The notes below the pieces were generated by a model. The model saw only the letters and a program-made list of their open reading frames with translations, was not told where the DNA came from and made no database searches. DNA of 24,269 bases. It comes from a virus. Position numbers and translations under genes: made by a program. The DNA is taken from positions 1 to 24,269 of the IMG/VR virus record IMGVR_UViG_3300034068_000074; one strand, written 5' to 3'. This document shows, in pieces, positions 1,429 through 19,087 of this stretch (the stretch's first letter is position 1; each line of letters starts with the position of its first letter).

Positions 1429-2091
1429 GTGTTTAATATGTACGCACCAATTGTCGGCTATGAAGGGCTATATGAAATGTCTGCTGAAGGTCGGGTGCGA
1501 AATGCGCGAACTTACCGAATCATGCCGGTTAAGTCGGGGCGCGTTACGCTAAGTAAGCAGGGTTTGCCTGCGGCGGTGCTAGTGGGCGAGTTAGCCGTAT
1601 CAACGGCTGCTGTTCCTGCGGCGCTAACTTTACCCCCACTAACCAGCCGTTTAGACGCGGCGCGTAGTTTTTACGGCGCTTGGGCAAACTCCGGGCATGT
1701 AGCTAAACATAACGGCGCGGCGGGGGAGTATTTGGTTTGCGCGGCGTTGGAGCAACACGGCGTGTCTGCGGCGTTGCCGGCGGTTAATACTGCGGAATAC
1801 GACGTTATTGGCGACTTTGGCCGGGGTAATTTTTTTACCATACAAGTAAAATCTACGTCGTGCGCTACGGAGGCTAGGCCGGGGGACACGCCAGCCTATA
1901 GGTTTAGGGGTCTACCGGCTAATCCGGATGCTTGCGACGTATATGCTTTTGTTGCGCTAGACACAGGTAAAGTTGTGTTTATGTTGGCGCAAAAGTTTAG
2001 CCAAGGAGGCAAAAATTTTAAGCGTGTGCATTTTGAAGCGGAAGCGTTAGTTTCTGTGCAAAATGTTTTGCAAACGTTGCACGCTAGGTAA
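1429..2091 (+). CDS. NUMOD4 plus PD-(D/E)XK nuclease, putative free-standing homing endonuclease
   Basis: 220 residues. Residues 6-45 (PIVGYEGLYEMSAEGRVRNA onward) fit NUMOD4, a DNA-recognition motif usually attached to HNH homing endonucleases. Residues 46-75 are an Ala/Leu/Pro-rich linker. Residues 92-190 resemble the PD-(D/E)XK family of the cyanobacterial intron enzyme I-Ssp6803I (PDDEXK_5): GAAGEYLV with E100, a YDVIGD strand with D125, and FTIQVKST with Q139 and K141. Together these give a complete E-D-QxK metal-binding core. No HNH motif is present. The start is GTG at 1429, with an in-frame ATG at 1438 equally possible and no clear Shine-Dalgarno. Position between the repeat array and small terminase is typical of mobile endonucleases. 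Codon use (TTA, TTG, GCG) differs from large terminase. A resolvase or DNA-processing role at the array is the main alternative. Confidence 0.75.
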   Translation: MFNMYAPIVGYEGLYEMSAEGRVRNARTYRIMPVKSGRVTLSKQGLPAAVLVGELAVSTAAVPAALTLPPLTSRLDAARSFYGAWANSGHVAKHNGAAGEYLVCAALEQHGVSAALPAVNTAEYDVIGDFGRGNFFTIQVKSTSCATEARPGDTPAYRFRGLPANPDACDVYAFVALDTGKVVFMLAQKFSQGGKNFKRVHFEAEALVSVQNVLQTLHAR

Positions 2092-2100
2092 GCCCTTAGC

Positions 2101-2571
2101 TTGCAGCCCAGGCATAGGTCAAATAGGCTAAATGGACAACCAATTTCAGGCCGTGGTATAACGGCGGCTATGTTTCGGTCACTACCACTGGCTATCCGAC
2201 CTAAAGTTCAGGCGACAGAGGCGCGTCTGGACGCCATATACAAAGCTGCATCTATGGGTTTAAAAGGGGATTCACTAGCACTGGCGTCTGGGATGCTGCC
2301 TTTAGAGTACCGACAATTGTGCCAATTTGACCCATTGGCCGAACTAGCGGCGCAGAAGGGCAAGGCGGACAACGAGCTGCGCGCAGCGCAGAGACTGAAC
2401 GAGGCGTCTGAAGGCGGCGACGCCAAGGCCAGCCTGGCGATACTCCAACACCTTCACGGCTGGACGGCCCGGCAGGAGATTAGTGTGGACGTCTATCAGA
2501 AGATCAGCGTCATCACGGCGCTTGAACAAGCCCGCGCGAGGGTGATCGAGGGGACGGTGGTAGATGGCTGA
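2101..2571 (+). CDS. terS: terminase small subunit
   Basis: 156 residues from TTG at 2101, which has AGGTAAG 8 bases upstream. An in-frame ATG at 2170 would give 133 residues and removes a poorly structured basic N-terminus. The small subunit recognises phage DNA and presents it to the motor. Residues about 40-75 form helices compatible with a helix-turn-helix (DAIYKAASMGLKGDSLALAS). The segment DAKASLAILQHLHGWT (107-122) is the pattern seen in many small terminases, a helix ending in a GW turn, followed by a helical oligomerisation tail. It overlaps the next gene by 8 bases, with large terminase one gene further on. Identification rests on this pattern and position; sequence divergence in this family is high. 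Confidence 0.7.
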   Translation: MQPRHRSNRLNGQPISGRGITAAMFRSLPLAIRPKVQATEARLDAIYKAASMGLKGDSLALASGMLPLEYRQLCQFDPLAELAAQKGKADNELRAAQRLNEASEGGDAKASLAILQHLHGWTARQEISVDVYQKISVITALEQARARVIEGTVVDG

Positions 2572-3466
2572 TAACAAGCTGGCACCCCAAAGCAAGAACA
2601 AGCTGCCATGGTATGAACAAGCGTTACCAATGGAGGGTCGCGCAACCTTTCTGCCCTTTCAAGACACGCTGCCGGGGTCAGTGATGAACCAGCGCAGCTT
2701 TGCGTTGCCCGGCGTTGTTGCCGGTGCTGTCAACGCAATCACCGCACCGGGGCGGGCCTACAGCGGCAGCGATCCGACCTTTAACCCCGAGGAAGAAGCG
2801 GCGAACTTTGCCATGAACGTAATGGGTGGCGGGGTGGGTGCGTCAAGGGCAGCACCCGCGCCTGCGGGTTCGTTGGGGATGAACGCATTTCATCGCACAG
2901 GTATTCCTTTTGAGGGTGCTTTTGAGCGTAACCGCCCTCAATCGCAGGCTTCGTTTTCAGGGCCAGAAGGTTTTTATTTTTCCCGGCACTCTAAAGACCC
3001 AACTACGGGCGTTTTTGGCCGCCATGTTATTCAAGCGGATGTTAAAGTTACAAAACCCGCGCCGGTATCACAAGTGTTTATTGGGCCTGGCAATATACCT
3101 ACCCCCCGCGCGGTGCTTCCGGTTACGCCCGTATGGGCTGCATTAAACAAGATAGATCCGGCACAGGGTGGGTATGTAATTGCGGATAGCGCGGCGGATG
3201 CAATAGCAGGCAAAAAAGCGCCGCGCTCAAATACTTACGCTGAATACGAACAACAGTTTTATACCGCGTTAATAAACAAAAAATTATTTAAGTTAGTGAA
3301 CCCAGAGGTATTAGAACCCTCCGACGTGTCTTTGCTTAAGTTGTATGGTTATGACGGTTTTGAATACAAACGCCCGCAAAACGCTACTTCTAGTATGCCA
3401 TCTCAGATTGTTGCGCTTGACCCCGAACAAATTGTTCGCAAAGCCGCTTGGACTGAGCCTAGGTAA
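2564..3466 (+). CDS. ADP-ribosyltransferase-like protein inserted between terminase subunits
   Basis: 300 residues, starting inside the end of the small terminase gene and ending TAATG with large terminase. Residues 1-105 are low-complexity, with a hydrophobic Ala/Gly stretch (ALPGVVAGAVNAITAPGRAY) like N-termini of virion-associated phage proteins. Residues 106-295 look like an ADP-ribosyltransferase of the polyvalent-protein or MuF type: AFHRTG (H110) as first strand, GFYFSRH (Y138) as second, GYDGFEYKR near 262-270, and SQIVALDPEQIV (Q281) at the end, where the catalytic Glu/Gln strand is expected. Such enzymes transfer ADP-ribose from NAD to host proteins or nucleic acids. From about 2890 the DNA shifts to T-rich, TTT/TTA-using codons, unlike the first 100 codons, which suggests a transplanted C-terminal domain. 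Catalytic activity is inferred, not shown. Confidence 0.65.
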   Translation: MADNKLAPQSKNKLPWYEQALPMEGRATFLPFQDTLPGSVMNQRSFALPGVVAGAVNAITAPGRAYSGSDPTFNPEEEAANFAMNVMGGGVGASRAAPAPAGSLGMNAFHRTGIPFEGAFERNRPQSQASFSGPEGFYFSRHSKDPTTGVFGRHVIQADVKVTKPAPVSQVFIGPGNIPTPRAVLPVTPVWAALNKIDPAQGGYVIADSAADAIAGKKAPRSNTYAEYEQQFYTALINKKLFKLVNPEVLEPSDVSLLKLYGYDGFEYKRPQNATSSMPSQIVALDPEQIVRKAAWTEPR

Positions 3467-4989
3467 TGCAATTACCGATCTATCAGTCTGAGGAAGAACA
3501 GCGGCTGATGGTCGAGCTGTGGTCGCCCGCGCTGGCGGATGACCCCGAAGCGTTTGTGTTGTTTGCCTTCCCATGGGGCCAGAAGAACACCCCACTGCAC
3601 AAGTTCAAAGGCCCGCGCAAGTGGCAGCGCGAGGTGCTGCGGGACATCAAAAAGCACATCGACGGCAACAAAGGCAAGATTCAGATGGACACCCTGCGAG
3701 AAGCGGTGTCATCTGGGCGCGGAATTGGCAAGTCAGCCTTAGTATCTTGGCTGGTGCTGTGGATGCTGACCACCCGCATCGGCGGCAGCGTCATCATCAG
3801 CGCCAACTCGGAGAACCAGTTGCGCTCGGTGACCTGGGCCGAGCTGACCAAGTGGTCAGCCATGTCTATCAACAACCACTGGTTTGAGATCAGCGCGACC
3901 AAGCTGGTGCCGGCGCAGTGGCTGTGCGAGCTGGTCGAGCGGGATCTTAAAAAGGGCACACGTTACTGGGCTGCCGAGGGCAAGCTGTGGTCGGCAGAGA
4001 ACCCGGACAGCTACGCGGGTGTGCACAACCAAGACGGCATGATGCTCATATTTGACGAGTCCAGCGGCATACCCAACCCGATATGGGAGGTGGGCGCTGG
4101 GTTCTTCACCGAGAACACGCCGGACAGGTACTGGTTTGCCTTTAGCAACCCGCGCCGCAACGAAGGCTACTTTTTTGAGTGTTTCCACGCTAAACGGGCG
4201 TTCTGGAACACTCGCAGCGTGGACGCGCGCACGGTGGAGGACACCGACAAGCAGGTCTACGAGCAGATTATTGCCGAATACGGCGAAGATAGCCCGCAGG
4301 CCAAAGTCGAGGTGTACGGTGAGTTCCCCGACGCGGGCGAAGATCAGTTCATCAAGCCCATGCTGGTCGAGGACGCCATGCAGCGGGAGCGGTGGAAGGA
4401 CACCACGGCGCCTATAATATTAGGTATCGACCCCGCGCGGGGCGGCGCGGACTCTACCGTGCTGGTGGTGCGCCAGGGGCGGGACATTGTGGCAATCAAA
4501 CGCTACTCGGGCGAGGACACCATGACCATTGTTGGGCGGGTGATTGACGCCATTGAGGAATACAAGCCAATTTTGTCCGTTATCGACGAAGGCGGGCTTG
4601 GATACGGCATACTTGACAGGCTCACAGAGCAGCGTTATAAGGTGCGAGGGGTAAACTTTGGCTGGAAGGCCAAAAACTCCATTATGTGGGGCAACAAGCG
4701 GGCTGAGATGTGGGGCACCATGAAGGATTGGCTGAAAACAGCGTCAATTCCAATTGATCGGCAGCTAAAAGCTGATTTGGTCGGCCCCATGAAGAAGCCT
4801 AACAGTAGCGGTACGATTTTCCTTGAAGGAAAGAAGGAAATGAGGAGTCGTGGTCTAGCCTCACCCGACGCCGCCGACGCGCTGGCGGTTACTTTTGCTT
4901 TTCCCGTCGCACACCGCGAGTATCGGGAGCCGACACGACGCACAGCGTCATCTCACGTTGGCGTAACCAACTCTTGGATGGGATCGTGA
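3466..4989 (+). CDS. terL: terminase large subunit (ATPase and nuclease)
   Basis: 507 residues, a normal length. This is the DNA-packaging motor that docks on the portal, pumps DNA and cuts concatemers. The N-terminal ATPase has a Walker A variant SGRGIGKSA (83-91) and Walker B MLIFDES (193-199) with D197 and catalytic E198, followed by a coupling-motif region (FAFSNPRR, 224-231). The C-terminal RNase H-like nuclease shows GIDPARGGADST with D322, SVIDEGGLGYG with D374, and SPDAADALAV with D468/D471, the expected acidic triad. The start ATG overlaps the upstream stop (TAATG). CTG and GAC codons dominate, which sets it apart from the preceding gene. All catalytic residues appear intact. Headful versus cos packaging cannot be decided here. 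Confidence 0.95.
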   Translation: MQLPIYQSEEEQRLMVELWSPALADDPEAFVLFAFPWGQKNTPLHKFKGPRKWQREVLRDIKKHIDGNKGKIQMDTLREAVSSGRGIGKSALVSWLVLWMLTTRIGGSVIISANSENQLRSVTWAELTKWSAMSINNHWFEISATKLVPAQWLCELVERDLKKGTRYWAAEGKLWSAENPDSYAGVHNQDGMMLIFDESSGIPNPIWEVGAGFFTENTPDRYWFAFSNPRRNEGYFFECFHAKRAFWNTRSVDARTVEDTDKQVYEQIIAEYGEDSPQAKVEVYGEFPDAGEDQFIKPMLVEDAMQRERWKDTTAPIILGIDPARGGADSTVLVVRQGRDIVAIKRYSGEDTMTIVGRVIDAIEEYKPILSVIDEGGLGYGILDRLTEQRYKVRGVNFGWKAKNSIMWGNKRAEMWGTMKDWLKTASIPIDRQLKADLVGPMKKPNSSGTIFLEGKKEMRSRGLASPDAADALAVTFAFPVAHREYREPTRRTASSHVGVTNSWMGS

Positions 4990-5243
4990 AGAAAAGCGTA
5001 TCTTTAGCTGTGGGTCGAGGCGAGAAGCTCCCGGTCAGCAAGGGCGCTGGTTTGACCGCGAAGGGTCGCGCTAAGTACAACAAAGCTACAGGCAGCAATC
5101 TAAAAGCCCCGGCGCCTAGCCCTAAGACCGCTGCCGACAAAGGGCGCAAAGCGTCATTTTGTGCCCGAATGTCTGGCGTGGTAGCCAAGGCCAAAGGCCC
5201 GGCTGAACGTGCAAAAGCCTCTCTTAAACGGTGGAAATGCTAA
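4986..5243 (+). CDS. small basic phage protein (DUF6321-like)
   Basis: 85 residues from GTG at 4986, which overlaps the large terminase stop as GTGA. A TTG at 4974 is possible but less economical. The protein is strongly basic and carries the conserved blocks GLTAKGRAKYNKATGSNLK, a KGRKASFCARM segment and a C-terminal KASLKRW. Many phages of different morphologies encode such a protein near the terminase or portal; I recall it as DUF6321. No membrane segment is seen. Lys/Arg richness and spaced aromatic residues suggest nucleic-acid contact. A packaging or head-assembly role is suggested by its neighbours only. It is followed at once by another small basic protein. Confidence 0.8.
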   Translation: MKKSVSLAVGRGEKLPVSKGAGLTAKGRAKYNKATGSNLKAPAPSPKTAADKGRKASFCARMSGVVAKAKGPAERAKASLKRWKC

Positions 5244-5386
5244 TGAAACCCGGACTCTACGCCAACATTAACGCTAAAAAAGCTCGCATTGCTGCGGGCA
5301 GCAAAGAAAAGATGCGTAAACCGGGCACGCCCGGCGCACCGACGGCTAAAGCGTTCAAACAATCGGCTAAAACGGCTAAAAAATAG
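5243..5386 (+). CDS. 47-residue basic protein between terminase and portal
   Basis: A short ORF whose ATG overlaps the preceding stop as TAATG and whose TAG overlaps the portal start as TAGTG, so it is wedged perfectly into the operon. It begins MKPGLYANINAKKARIAAGS and ends with a TAKAFKQSAKTAKK tail. More than a quarter of the residues are Lys or Arg and there is no hydrophobic segment. I recognise very similar short proteins (MKxGLYANI.. KPGxxGAPTAKAF..) beside terminase and portal genes of many uncultured and freshwater phages, without a known function. The exact overlaps on both sides and the family resemblance make it a confident gene despite its size. DNA binding is a guess from composition. 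Confidence 0.85.
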   Translation: MKPGLYANINAKKARIAAGSKEKMRKPGTPGAPTAKAFKQSAKTAKK

Positions 5387-7599
5387 TGGCCTATCAAGAC
5401 ACCGGCATTAATGAAGCCGGGGCAGTAGCCTCTGGCGGCACTAAGCGTGACCGTGACAACGGTGAGATGCTGGCGACCATGCGTACCCGCCTGACGATGG
5501 CGATTGCTGCCTATTCGGACAGCCGCGAGGATGAGCTGGACGACCTGCGCTTTCGTGCGGCCTCGCCCGACAACCAGTGGCAGTGGCCTGCCGATGTGCT
5601 GGCGACGCGCGGCTCGGTGCAGGGCCAGACGATTAACGCCCGACCCTGCCTGACCATCAACAAGCTGCCGCAGCATGTGCTGCAAGTGACCAACGACCAG
5701 CGGCAGAACCGGCCCAGTGGCAAGGTCATCCCGGCTGACGACAAGGCCGACATCGAGGTGGCCGAGATATTCAACGGTTTGGTGCGGCACATTGAGTATA
5801 TCTCGGACGCTGACGTAGCCTACGACACGGCCTGCGACAACCAGGTGACGTTCGGTGAAGGTTACTTCCGCATCCTGACTGAATACTGCGACGACGACAC
5901 TTTTGAGCAAGACTTGCGGATTGGGCGTATTCGGGACTCGTTTAGCGTCTATATGGATCCGACAATCCAAGACCCCTGCGGTTCGGACGCCGAGTGGTGC
6001 TTTATTAACCAGGAAATCACCAAAGACGAATACGAGCGGCAGTTTCCTGACGCCGCCACGTTGTCCAGCCTGCAATACGGCGTGGGCGACGGGCAGCTAA
6101 ACGCTTGGATCAACCAAGATACGGTGCGGATTGCCGAGTATTTTTACATCAAGCACGAATCCAAAAAACTAAACCAATACCCCGGTGGGGTCACCGCAAT
6201 GGCGGGGTCGCCCGAAGCCAAACAAATAGAAATGATGGGTTTGGCGGCTATAAAGACCCGAGATGTGGACGTTAGATCGGTCAAATGGTGCAAAACCAAC
6301 GGTTTTGAGGTGCTGGAAGAACGCGATTGGGCGGGCAAATATATCCCCGTAATCCGCGTAATTGGCAACGAATTTGAGATAGATGGCCGCATGTACGTCA
6401 GCGGGCTAGTGCGGAACGCCAAAGACGCGCAGCGCATGTACAACTACTGGGTTAGCCAAGAGGCCGAGATGCTGGCGCTGGCGCCCAAGGCACCGTTTAT
6501 CGGCTATGGCGGTCAGTTTGAGGGCTACGAGCAGCAGTGGAAAACGGCCAACATCAACAACTGGCCGTATCTGGAGGTCAACCCAGACGTTACAGACGGC
6601 CAAGGTGCTGTTTTGCCGCTGCCGGCTAGGGCACAGCCACCGATGGCCTCCAGCGGCCTGCTGCAAGCCAAAGCGGGCGCTGCCGACGACATTAAAAGCT
6701 CGACAGGCCAGTATGATAGCAGTCTAGGCGCCACCAGCAACGAGCGGTCGGGGCGGGCTATTCTGGCGCGGGAAAAGCAGTCCGACACCGGCACCTACCA
6801 TTATGTTGACAACCTAGCCCGTGCTATTCGTTACGCAACACGGCAACTGGTTGATCTGATACCGAAAATCTACGATACCCAGCGCATTGCGCGGATTATC
6901 GGCATGGACGGCGAAACCGACCAAGCCATGATTGACCCGACACAACCGATGCCGGTCAAGAAGATTCAAAACGAGCAAGGCATTGTTATCAAAAAGATTT
7001 ACAACCCCAATGTCGGCAAGTACGATGTTGCGGTGACTACCGGCCCGAGCTACATGACCAAGCGGCAAGAGTCGCTTGATGCCATGAGCCAACTGCTGCA
7101 AGGCAACCCGCAACTGTGGGCTGTGGCCGGCGACCTGTTCATCAAGCACATGGACTGGCCGGGCGCGCAAGAGATGGCAAAACGCTTTGCCAAGACGATT
7201 GACCCCAAGCTGCTGTCTGACGAGGACGATCCGGCGCTGCAAGCGGCCAACCAGCAGATGCAGGCAATGGGCCAGGAAATGCAACAGATGCAGCAAATGC
7301 TGCAAAATGTCAGTCAGTCAATGGAAGCGCAGACGCTGAAGGTCAAAGAATTTGAGGCCGAAGTTAAAGCCTACGACGCAGAGACTAAGCGGATTAGCGC
7401 GGTGCAGGCCGGAATGAGCGAAGAACAGATTCAGGATATTGCAATGGGTGTGGTTGCCGCCGCGTTGGAGTCGCAGGGTATGATGAACCAGATGCCCGAC
7501 ATGCGCGAAGAATCCATGCCAATGGAAATGATGCAGCTAGACCAGATGCCGCCGCCAGGTATGGAACAAATGCCGCCACCGCAAGGGATGCCACAGTGA
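5386..7599 (+). CDS. portal protein, P22-like
   Basis: 737 residues, close to the 725 of P22 gp1. The portal is the dodecameric ring at one capsid vertex through which DNA enters and leaves. The start is GTG, overlapping the previous stop. Residues about 25-220 match the P22_portal family pattern: a DDLRFRAASPDNQW block, then RPCLTINKLPQHVLQVTNDQ, NRPSGKVIPADD, CDNQVTFGEGYFR and SVYMDPTIQDPCGSDAEW. The centre contains GAADDIKSSTGQYDSSLGA and SGRAILAREKQSDTGT, also typical. Residues about 615-675 are a Gln/Met-rich coiled coil, and the last 37 residues are Met/Pro-rich. This matches the helical barrel and tail extension in the family. Nothing is missing, and the order terminase then portal is standard. 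Confidence 0.95.
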   Translation: MAYQDTGINEAGAVASGGTKRDRDNGEMLATMRTRLTMAIAAYSDSREDELDDLRFRAASPDNQWQWPADVLATRGSVQGQTINARPCLTINKLPQHVLQVTNDQRQNRPSGKVIPADDKADIEVAEIFNGLVRHIEYISDADVAYDTACDNQVTFGEGYFRILTEYCDDDTFEQDLRIGRIRDSFSVYMDPTIQDPCGSDAEWCFINQEITKDEYERQFPDAATLSSLQYGVGDGQLNAWINQDTVRIAEYFYIKHESKKLNQYPGGVTAMAGSPEAKQIEMMGLAAIKTRDVDVRSVKWCKTNGFEVLEERDWAGKYIPVIRVIGNEFEIDGRMYVSGLVRNAKDAQRMYNYWVSQEAEMLALAPKAPFIGYGGQFEGYEQQWKTANINNWPYLEVNPDVTDGQGAVLPLPARAQPPMASSGLLQAKAGAADDIKSSTGQYDSSLGATSNERSGRAILAREKQSDTGTYHYVDNLARAIRYATRQLVDLIPKIYDTQRIARIIGMDGETDQAMIDPTQPMPVKKIQNEQGIVIKKIYNPNVGKYDVAVTTGPSYMTKRQESLDAMSQLLQGNPQLWAVAGDLFIKHMDWPGAQEMAKRFAKTIDPKLLSDEDDPALQAANQQMQAMGQEMQQMQQMLQNVSQSMEAQTLKVKEFEAEVKAYDAETKRISAVQAGMSEEQIQDIAMGVVAAALESQGMMNQMPDMREESMPMEMMQLDQMPPPGMEQMPPPQGMPQ

Positions 7600-17754: not shown

Positions 17755-18090
17755 ATGACCGTAACCGTAAAAGTGCTGATACCGGCCAAAACCGCAGAAG
17801 CCAGCCAAACCACGCAATACACTGCGTCAAACGTCACCACGATTATCGACAAGTTTACGGCGACCAACTACAGCGCCAGTTCCGCAACCTTGAGCGTCAA
17901 TCTGGTTACCTCGGGCGACACTTCGGGCAACCAGAACCTGATTACCAAGACCAAGACGCTTGCGCCAGCAGAGGTATATACTTTCCCCGAGATTGTCGGC
18001 CAGGTGCTGATGGCAAGCGGGTTTATCTCCACCATTGCCGGGACGGCCACGGCCATCAACATTCGTGCTTCAGGGCGGGAGGTTAGCTAG
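17755..18090 (+). CDS. beta-rich structural-type protein
   Basis: 111 residues, starting 3 bases after the XkdW-like gene. It begins MTVTVKVLIPAKTAEASQTT and is composed of alternating polar and hydrophobic residues with many Thr and Ser (SASSATLSVNLVTSGDTSG), ending IRASGREVS. It looks like a single immunoglobulin-like or jelly-roll domain and resembles in style the protein at 7967-8239. The stop overlaps the GTG of the hydroxylase gene. It is probably a minor virion or fibre-associated protein; no named family is recognised. Confidence 0.7.
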   Translation: MTVTVKVLIPAKTAEASQTTQYTASNVTTIIDKFTATNYSASSATLSVNLVTSGDTSGNQNLITKTKTLAPAEVYTFPEIVGQVLMASGFISTIAGTATAINIRASGREVS

Positions 18091-18632
18091 TGCGGCACTT
18101 TTGTAAGCTAGCGGGTAATGTAGATGTCATGCCGTCATTGCGTGAACTGGCGGTAAATAGCCATTTATGGAACCAAAACTCTTTACGCACTACGCACCCC
18201 AACAGCCCGCATACGCAAGTTGACGATATATGGTTATGGTTTAACAAGTTACAGCAGGACGTAGCCGCAACGATTGATGACATACAAACTTACCCATACC
18301 CAGCTTGGCAAAGCCTGTTAGGGCTGCGCGGGATTGTCTTGGATTTAATACGCCGCGTAGACGGCGTTCAATTGGGCCGGTGCATGGTAACTCGTATGCG
18401 TCCCGGCGCTACGATAACGCCGCATAAAGACGAGGGCACACCCGCTACGTTTTACACTCGGTATCAAATAGTTTTACAAAGCCTTCCCGGCGCGTTATTT
18501 ACTATAGGGGACGAAACCGTAAATTTTCAATCCGGCGATATTTGGTGGATTAACAACCGGGAAACACATTCGGTAATAAATAACAGCGGCGAAGATAGAC
18601 TTGTATGTATTGTTGATATTAAAAGCGCGTAA
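18090..18632 (+). CDS. aspartyl/asparaginyl beta-hydroxylase-like Fe(II)/2-oxoglutarate oxygenase
   Basis: 180 residues from GTG overlapping the previous stop (TAGTG). The C-terminal half is a cupin-type beta barrel with the metal triad HKD at 112-114 (H112, D114) and a distal His in NNRETH (H160), followed by R170, the expected 2-oxoglutarate contact. RYQIVLQSLPGALFTIGDET and NFQSGDIWWINNRETHSV match the Asp_Arg_Hydrox family. Members hydroxylate Asp/Asn side chains in proteins or act on small substrates. The N-terminal 80 residues are Trp-rich and less conserved. It is followed, with TAATG overlap, by an acetyltransferase gene; both use TTA/GCG-rich codons unlike the portal and terminase. 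The substrate is unknown; a virion or host protein is possible. Confidence 0.8.
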   Translation: MRHFCKLAGNVDVMPSLRELAVNSHLWNQNSLRTTHPNSPHTQVDDIWLWFNKLQQDVAATIDDIQTYPYPAWQSLLGLRGIVLDLIRRVDGVQLGRCMVTRMRPGATITPHKDEGTPATFYTRYQIVLQSLPGALFTIGDETVNFQSGDIWWINNRETHSVINNSGEDRLVCIVDIKSA

Positions 18633-19087
18633 TGATAACTGCCCAAATTGAACCTTGGCCAGCATTTATACATGAAGCGCAACCGCTTCTTCCGTTGCAT
18701 TGGGCGGAGTTAGCGTTAAACAAGGACAAGGTGCCGTTAGACCCGCAATACGATGTATACGCGGCTAGAGACACGGCGGGGCAAGTGCTAGTGGTAACTT
18801 TGCGCCAAGATGGTGAATTAGTAGGCTACTTTATAGGCTTTATAGCGCCGGGTTTGCACTATAAAACTTGTCTTACGTTAACAATGGATATTTTTTGGAC
18901 GCACCCTTCAATACGTAACGGGTTTGCGGGCGTTAAACTTTTTAGGCTTGTTGAAAAAGAAGCAAAACGTCGGGGTGTTCAACGCATGTTTTTTGGGTCT
19001 AAATTACACAAAGACGCGTCTAAACTATTTGAATTTTTAAAAATGCAGGCTACGGAAATTTATTATTCTAAGTGGCTAGGAGATTAA
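18632..19087 (+). CDS. GNAT-family acetyltransferase
   Basis: 151 residues. The ATG overlaps the hydroxylase stop (TAATG). Fold features in order: an N-terminal helix, strands with VLVVTLRQDGELVGYFIGFI (52-71), the strand TLTMDIFWTHPSIR, and the acetyl-CoA pyrophosphate loop R95-N-G-F-A-G100 leading into helix VKLFRLVEKEAKRRG. A final strand-helix part ends TEIYYSKWLGD. Very similar GNAT proteins ending in YxKWLG occur in tail or ejection modules of many podoviruses; their substrates are not known. It is probably an N-acetyltransferase acting on a protein or small amine. Coupling to the hydroxylase suggests a shared target. It sits 1 base ahead of the ejection genes. Confidence 0.85.
   Translation: MITAQIEPWPAFIHEAQPLLPLHWAELALNKDKVPLDPQYDVYAARDTAGQVLVVTLRQDGELVGYFIGFIAPGLHYKTCLTLTMDIFWTHPSIRNGFAGVKLFRLVEKEAKRRGVQRMFFGSKLHKDASKLFEFLKMQATEIYYSKWLGD

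What the first reader, a model, noticed from the sequence alone, without database searches (positions are those of the whole stretch)
2564..3466. ADP-ribosyltransferase-like gene between the two terminase genes
The C-terminal 190 residues show the three-strand ART pattern (AFHRTG, GFYFS, SQIVALDPEQI). The gene overlaps small terminase by 8 bases and large terminase by 1, so it is made together with the packaging motor. The N-terminus looks like those of virion-associated proteins. A toxin or host-modifying enzyme carried in the virion, or a modifier of the packaging machinery, would both be new for this position.
Basis: partly seen in the sequence, partly recalled or inferred. Interest (0 to 1): 0.65.

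Follow-up and report, generated by a model that had tools for sequence, protein, structure and literature searches.

The report
Swappable phage effector, ADP-ribosyltransferase version
A gene squeezed between two DNA-packaging genes of a short-tailed phage encodes a constant front part joined to a divergent ADP-ribosyltransferase; related phages keep the same front part but swap the rear part for about ten unrelated ones, as if the front were an address label for cargo carried in the virus particle.

Summary
The gene is real and sits exactly as described (300 aa, 8-base overlap with the small terminase, 1-base overlap with the large terminase). Residues 107-300 are very probably a divergent ADP-ribosyltransferase (ART) of the phage 'ART-PolyVal' type: a profile of known phage ARTs scores it far above shuffles, H110 and Y138 are kept, and a modest-confidence model matches phage ARTs and PARPs. 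It misses Pfam's cut-off, and its third catalytic residue is unsettled. The stronger result lies outside the finding. Residues 1-106 are a constant leader found in about 80 virus contigs, one copy per phage. In close relatives the flanking DNA is 75-99% identical, while everything after residue ~106 is replaced: an ART here, LPD23 plus a peptidase-like domain or another ART elsewhere, about ten unrelated types overall. The gene lies among packaging genes in nearly every locus read, though not always between the terminase genes, and is absent from two complete relatives. It is therefore an exchangeable accessory effector, most likely packaged and ejected into the host (inferred), not part of the packaging motor. 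ARTs beside terminase genes were already reported (PMC9503650); the unnamed leader with polymorphic rear ends is a new variant of a known kind.

The parts
2564..3466 (+). Effector gene, 300 aa: constant leader plus divergent ADP-ribosyltransferase-like domain
   Evidence: identical or near-identical copies in L001 and L002, 81% identical in L003
2564..2881 (+). Constant leader module, aa 1-106 (LPMEGRATFLPFQDT...ALPGVVAGAVNAITAPGRA...EEAANFAMNVMGGG...AGSLGM); no match in Pfam, PHROGs or NCBIfam
   Evidence: one copy in each of 16 records; third-position GC 0.66
2882..3466 (+). Swappable C-terminal cassette, aa 107-300: divergent ART-PolyVal-like domain; H110, Y138 and Q281 lie in predicted strands
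   Evidence: third-position GC 0.41, dN/dS 0.32 against L003
2101..2571 (+). Putative small terminase subunit, flank kept at 75-99% nucleotide identity in relatives
   Evidence: Position; short C-terminal similarity to the annotated small terminase of phage DSL-LC05
3466..4989 (+). Large terminase subunit, flank kept at 84-100% nucleotide identity in relatives
   Evidence: Pfam Terminase_6N E 4.5e-05; phrog_2 E 3.7e-45
4974..5243 (+). DUF6321 small basic protein, a recurrent neighbour of the effector gene
   Evidence: PF19846 E 1.4e-18
5386..7599 (+). Portal protein (phrog_156); packaging and head module
   Evidence: phrog_156 E 4.5e-129

Best explanation
The gene encodes an exchangeable host-modifying effector. 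A constant ~106-residue leader most likely brings the protein into the head with the other late proteins, and the C-terminal ART-like domain acts on host macromolecules after ejection with the DNA. Shown: the gene, the ART-like domain (by profile, motifs and a modest model), the constant leader, replacement of the C-terminus at a fixed boundary within closely related phages, and a location among packaging genes. Inferred: loading into the virion, ejection, NAD-dependent activity and a bacterial target.
For: ART identity: Pfam ART-PolyVal E 0.008 over aa 109-290; a separate ART profile gives 16.1 bits against 4.5 for the best shuffle, and among 4447 ORFs the listed sequences that outscore it are ART-bearing proteins; profile-profile E 2e-5, probability 77%; model pTM 0.54, whose best viral match is a PolyVal ART, E 1.7e-5, and whose PDB matches are a cyanophage A4 pre-ejectosome chain, E 7.8e-3, then PARPs (Z up to 7.8). 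Swapping: terS, leader and terL align at 75-91% nucleotide identity in L004, L005, L009, L010 and L014, while the C-terminus has no nucleotide match there; 54 distinct C-termini fall into about ten groups; the leader has higher third-position GC than the C-terminus in 60 of 66 genes. Packaging context: terminase or portal genes are near neighbours in nine further loci read. The same leader lies inside 1615-2420-residue ORFs L091, L093 and L094. Purifying selection, dN/dS 0.32. Literature: phage ARTs near terminase and portal genes predicted to be head-packaged (PMC9503650); T4 Alt as a packaged ART (PMC5512222).
Against: No proteomics or activity data. The Pfam score, 17.4 bits, is below the 31.2 cut-off, and L003 has no Pfam hit. 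A profile dominated by the GTGEGAQ-type ARTs does not detect it. The model has mean pLDDT 57 and was built on an alignment containing known ARTs, so it is not independent. The leader matches no solved protein chain. The canonical catalytic Glu position is Gln.
Confidence: 0.6

Rival explanations
1. Late-expressed effector that stays in the infected cell (host take-over, defence inhibition or superinfection exclusion) and is not packaged.
For: No virion evidence; the leader has no similarity to solved structural proteins; late gene position only shows timing.
Against: A constant leader carrying unrelated C-termini is hard to explain if no transport or loading is needed; the leader lies inside giant multidomain ORFs of the class predicted to be injected (PMC5512222).
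Confidence: 0.18
2. Modifier of the packaging machinery, for instance ADP-ribosylating terminase or portal.
For: Start and stop overlap the two terminase genes, so expression is probably coupled.
Against: Absent from the complete genomes of DSL-LC05 and MW202483, whose terS and terL genes overlap directly; elsewhere the gene lies before terL, between terL and portal, or after portal; the ART is replaced by a peptidase-like domain in sister phages.
Confidence: 0.06
3. A catalytically dead ART-like fold kept as a binding or structural domain.
For: Gln at the canonical Glu position and N in most relatives; sequence kept at dN/dS 0.32.
Against: H110 and Y138 are invariant in 20 aligned sequences; canonical phage ARTs vary at the same third position, so variation there is not a mark of inactivity; the other main C-terminal type keeps an HExxH site.
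Confidence: 0.1
4. The C-terminus is not an ART; the motif resemblance is chance.
For: Sub-threshold Pfam score and no hit for L003; weak hhalign score against the GTGEGAQ group, E 0.043.
Confidence: 0.06

Closest known systems
Polyvalent proteins of phages and conjugative elements (PMC5512222), with ART-PolyVal PF18760 and LPD23 PF18838
   Same: Same kinds of C-terminal domain (ART of the H-Y clade, LPD23 with a zincin-like peptidase motif), late-gene context, and the same leader inside three giant ORFs
   Different: Here one short protein with a constant leader and usually one effector, exchanged as a cassette within close relatives
MuF polymorphic toxins of temperate phages (PMC5576092)
   Same: Constant N-terminus tied to the packaging module, variable C-terminal effector domains including ARTs
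   Different: No MuF domain; no gene between it and terL that could be an immunity gene; no occurrence found in the bacterial genome collection
Phage ARTs beside terminase and portal genes (PMC9503650)
   Same: ART gene in the packaging neighbourhood, predicted to be packaged into the head
   Different: The passages read there do not describe this leader or the exchange of the ART for a peptidase-like domain at the same locus
T4 Alt
   Same: Works alike if the model holds: a packaged ART injected with DNA that modifies host proteins
   Different: Alt belongs to the R-S-E clade (PMC5512222); this one has the H-Y pattern and a different leader
Cyanophage A4 pre-ejectosome protein, PDB 9k3a chain B
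   Same: Best PDB fold match to the ART-like model, in a protein of a phage ejection complex
   Different: 1071-residue chain, 12% identity, no leader match; which part is ART-like was not examined

Membership tests
ART superfamily, H-Y (Tox-ART-HYD2/PolyVal) clade | Catalytic His in strand 1 and Tyr in strand 2 | tested here: met
   H110 and Y138 invariant in 20 aligned leader-ART proteins; both fall in predicted strands
ART superfamily, H-Y (Tox-ART-HYD2/PolyVal) clade | Third catalytic residue in strand 5 (Asp according to PMC5512222) | tested here: inconclusive
   Window has Q281 at the canonical Glu position and D264 in GYDG; L003 has N at the latter; relatives vary
ART superfamily, H-Y (Tox-ART-HYD2/PolyVal) clade | ART fold | tested here: inconclusive
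   Modest model, pLDDT 57, pTM 0.54; matches to PolyVal ARTs, PARPs and diphtheria toxin, but Z below 8 and the alignment was seeded with ARTs
ART superfamily, H-Y (Tox-ART-HYD2/PolyVal) clade | NAD-dependent ADP-ribosylation | not testable with these tools
   Needs purified protein
Pfam ART-PolyVal PF18760 as curated | Score above the gathering cut-off (31.2 bits) | tested here: not met
   17.4 bits; not filed as a curated member
Polyvalent proteins | Two or more disparate domains in one polypeptide | tested here: not met
   Window protein has one recognisable effector domain besides the leader; L017 has zincin-like and ART segments, and L091, L093, L094 are giant ORFs with ART segments
Polyvalent proteins | Late-gene, virion-gene neighbourhood in phages | tested here: met
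MuF polymorphic toxins | N-terminal MuF domain | tested here: not met
   No MuF hit in Pfam, PHROGs or NCBIfam scans of the protein
MuF polymorphic toxins | Constant N-terminus with variable C-terminal effectors | tested here: met
T4 Alt family | R-S-E catalytic pattern | tested here: not met
   The strand-1 motif carries H110, not Arg, and strand 2 carries Y138

The most novel reading that the evidence does not exclude
The unnamed ~95-106-residue leader is a self-sufficient virion-loading and ejection signal of short-tailed phages; phages exchange different effector cassettes behind it, and in principle any protein behind it would be delivered into the bacterial host.
Probability: 0.4. Interest if true: 0.72.

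Novelty: new variant of a known kind. Interest (0 to 1): 0.48.

Why it matters
If the leader is a loading signal, it gives a small defined tag to test how short-tailed phages choose which proteins to carry in the head, and a marker for finding new effectors: everything behind the leader is a candidate. Several C-terminal types already listed (for example those of L015/L016, L039/L042, L044/L059, L040/L061) have no family assignment. The exchange at a sharp boundary between two packaging genes also makes this a clean case of cassette swapping in phage genomes.

Tried and rejected
AlphaFold2 on the whole protein with 20 aligned sequences: pLDDT 34.6, discarded. ART-only and leader searches of the bacterial genome collection: 97 and 157 pattern matches, none confirmed. 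tblastn of the full protein or the ART part against phages and plasmids: nothing useful. DNA-pattern scan for GYDGFEY to find intermediates: gave one canonical phage ART, L189, and otherwise proteins without an evident ART; its own relatives scan gave only itself. A profile of the GTGEGAQ-type ARTs does not see the window ART, and a third iteration dominated by that subtype loses it again; I therefore rely on the canonical-ART profile and disclose this choice. PDB sequence searches with the ART, leader and canonical profiles gave nothing credible. Family search with PF18760 in the two relatives lacking the gene gave nothing, with no positive control in that run; the leader profile, which found all 16 controls, is the sounder test. 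No open paper on the cyanophage A4 pre-ejectosome structure was found. Considered and rejected: toxin-antitoxin pair (no partner gene between effector and terL); integral part of the terminase.

Full report
The observation. The window is a 24,269-base virus record with a P22-like set of late genes: putative small terminase, the gene in question, large terminase, DUF6321 protein, portal, weak scaffold match, major head protein, head-closure protein and DNA-ejection protein. The gene at 2564-3466 is exactly as described, with an 8-base overlap upstream and a 1-base overlap downstream, and the motifs and residue numbers are right. The small terminase is named by position and by a short similarity to an annotated one.

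Is the C-terminus an ART? Pfam gives ART-PolyVal at E 0.008 over aa 109-290, below the curated cut-off, and L003, the only other clearly distinct sequence of this subtype, has no hit. The domain is not close to the common GTGEGAQ-type phage ARTs. It is closer to the canonical ART-PolyVal group: a profile built from canonical phage ARTs and polyvalent proteins, with the window family left out, scores it 16.1 bits against 4.5 for the best of 500 shuffles. Among 4447 ORFs the listed sequences that outscore it are ART-bearing proteins, and profile-profile comparison gives E 2e-5 at 77% probability. That signal comes from the last part (LLKLYGYDGFEYKR...SQIVALDPEQI); the H and Y motifs lie upstream in the right order. 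Further iterations dominated by the GTGEGAQ subtype lose the signal. A model of aa 100-300 on a 61-row alignment reached pLDDT 57 and pTM 0.54, with several core strands at 70-80; H110, Y138 and Q281 fall in strands. Its best matches are PolyVal ARTs among viral models, E 1.7e-5, and in the PDB a cyanophage A4 pre-ejectosome chain and then PARPs, with Z up to 7.8. The alignment contained ARTs, so the model is consistent with an ART rather than independent proof. I put the ART fold at about 0.9 and an active enzyme lower, because the third catalytic residue is unsettled: Q281 occupies the canonical Glu place, relatives have other residues there (N, S, H or E among them), and D264 in GYDG is another candidate.

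The larger finding. Searching virus contigs with the whole protein returned three full-length relatives and eight that share only residues 1-106. In those eight (one is cut short by its contig end) the rest is a different protein; the three scanned (L007, L009, L011) carry LPD23 (PF18838, E 1e-10 to 5e-12, above cut-off) followed by a region with an HELQH motif, and an HExxH site is invariant in 13 aligned members. A profile of the leader then found 63 and 104 confirmed contig matches in two scans, 80 of the latter kept. Sixteen records checked whole carry exactly one copy each. After removal of duplicates, 54 distinct C-termini form about ten groups with no detectable mutual similarity by BLASTP. 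The largest are GTGEGAQ-type ARTs (24; ART-PolyVal in 17 of 22 scanned) and LPD23-zincin (13); others have little or no family match.

Swapping at a sharp boundary. In the close relatives the terS, leader and terL segments align with the window at 75-99%, 76-100% and 84-100% nucleotide identity. The segment after the leader aligns only in L001, L002 and L003, and not at all in L004, L005, L009, L010 and L014. L014 has a GTGEGAQ-type ART at the same place. In the window, third-position GC drops from 0.66 in the leader to 0.41 in the ART and returns to 0.74 in terL; the leader exceeds the C-terminus in 60 of 66 genes (not corrected for relatedness). The ART segment is under purifying selection against L003, dN/dS 0.32, compared with 0.05 for terL.

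Position and dispensability. The leader gene is near terminase or portal genes in nearly every locus whose neighbours were identified: between terS and terL (window group), before terL (L026, L035, L043, L061), between terL and portal (L011, L017, L060; after terL in L016), after portal (L054). In L007 and L008 it follows a different terminase. In L089, with another gene order, the neighbours are an endolysin and unassigned proteins. Complete genomes of DSL-LC05 and MW202483, with terL about 70% identical, have terS or its positional equivalent directly overlapping terL and no leader anywhere, with the same query positive in 16 of 16 other records. It is therefore an accessory gene.

How it most likely works. 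A constant leader joined to exchangeable enzymes is the design of systems in which the N-terminus decides transport and the C-terminus the activity, as in MuF polymorphic toxins (PMC5576092). The leader also sits inside three giant ORFs of 1615-2420 residues that resemble the polyvalent class predicted to be injected with DNA (PMC5512222). The simplest reading is that the leader loads the protein into the head and the ART acts on host macromolecules after ejection, as T4 Alt does. Loading, ejection, activity and target are inferred, not shown.

Comparison with the known. ARTs encoded beside terminase and portal genes and predicted to be packaged are reported in PMC9503650, so the claim that the position is new fails. 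The leader has no match in Pfam, PHROGs or NCBIfam, and I found no description of it in the papers read, although only passages of a few were read and the library holds open papers only. Other short phage ART proteins carry different leaders ahead of the ART, so this leader looks like one of several families built to the same plan. Hence 'new variant of a known kind'.

Noticed in passing
window 18090-18632 and 18632-19087: An aspartyl/asparaginyl beta-hydroxylase-like gene (PF05118, E 1.8e-13) directly followed by a GNAT acetyltransferase-like gene, both among late genes next to the ejection genes.
   Followed up: no
L043, L044, L046, L059 and others, last ~15 residues: A short tail (RKELLQQEFDKLDK) is shared by proteins with different C-terminal effector types, so some of these proteins have two constant ends.
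   Followed up: partly
L095-L174, start of the ART ORFs: Other short phage ART proteins carry several different leader families at the same place.
   Followed up: partly
L007 and L008, 4393-7023: The effector with this leader follows a large terminase of another family, while DUF6321 and portal downstream resemble the window: terminase exchange next to the cassette.
   Followed up: no
window 4974-5243; L011, L016, L031, L044, L061 and others: A DUF6321 small basic protein gene is a frequent close neighbour of the effector gene across the family.
   Followed up: no
L006, 4553-5954: terL and terS appear on opposite strands at their junction in this contig, perhaps an assembly chimaera.
   Followed up: no
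L017 5767-7731; L020; L035; L045: Leader proteins with two effector segments: LPD23-zincin-like plus a second ART (L017), a weak ParB-like addition (L020, E 0.014), and by eye an acetyltransferase-like end (L035) and a second ART-like segment (L045).
   Followed up: partly
window 1429-2091: Gene upstream of terS with weak NUMOD4 and PD-(D/E)XK endonuclease matches, possibly a homing endonuclease.
   Followed up: no
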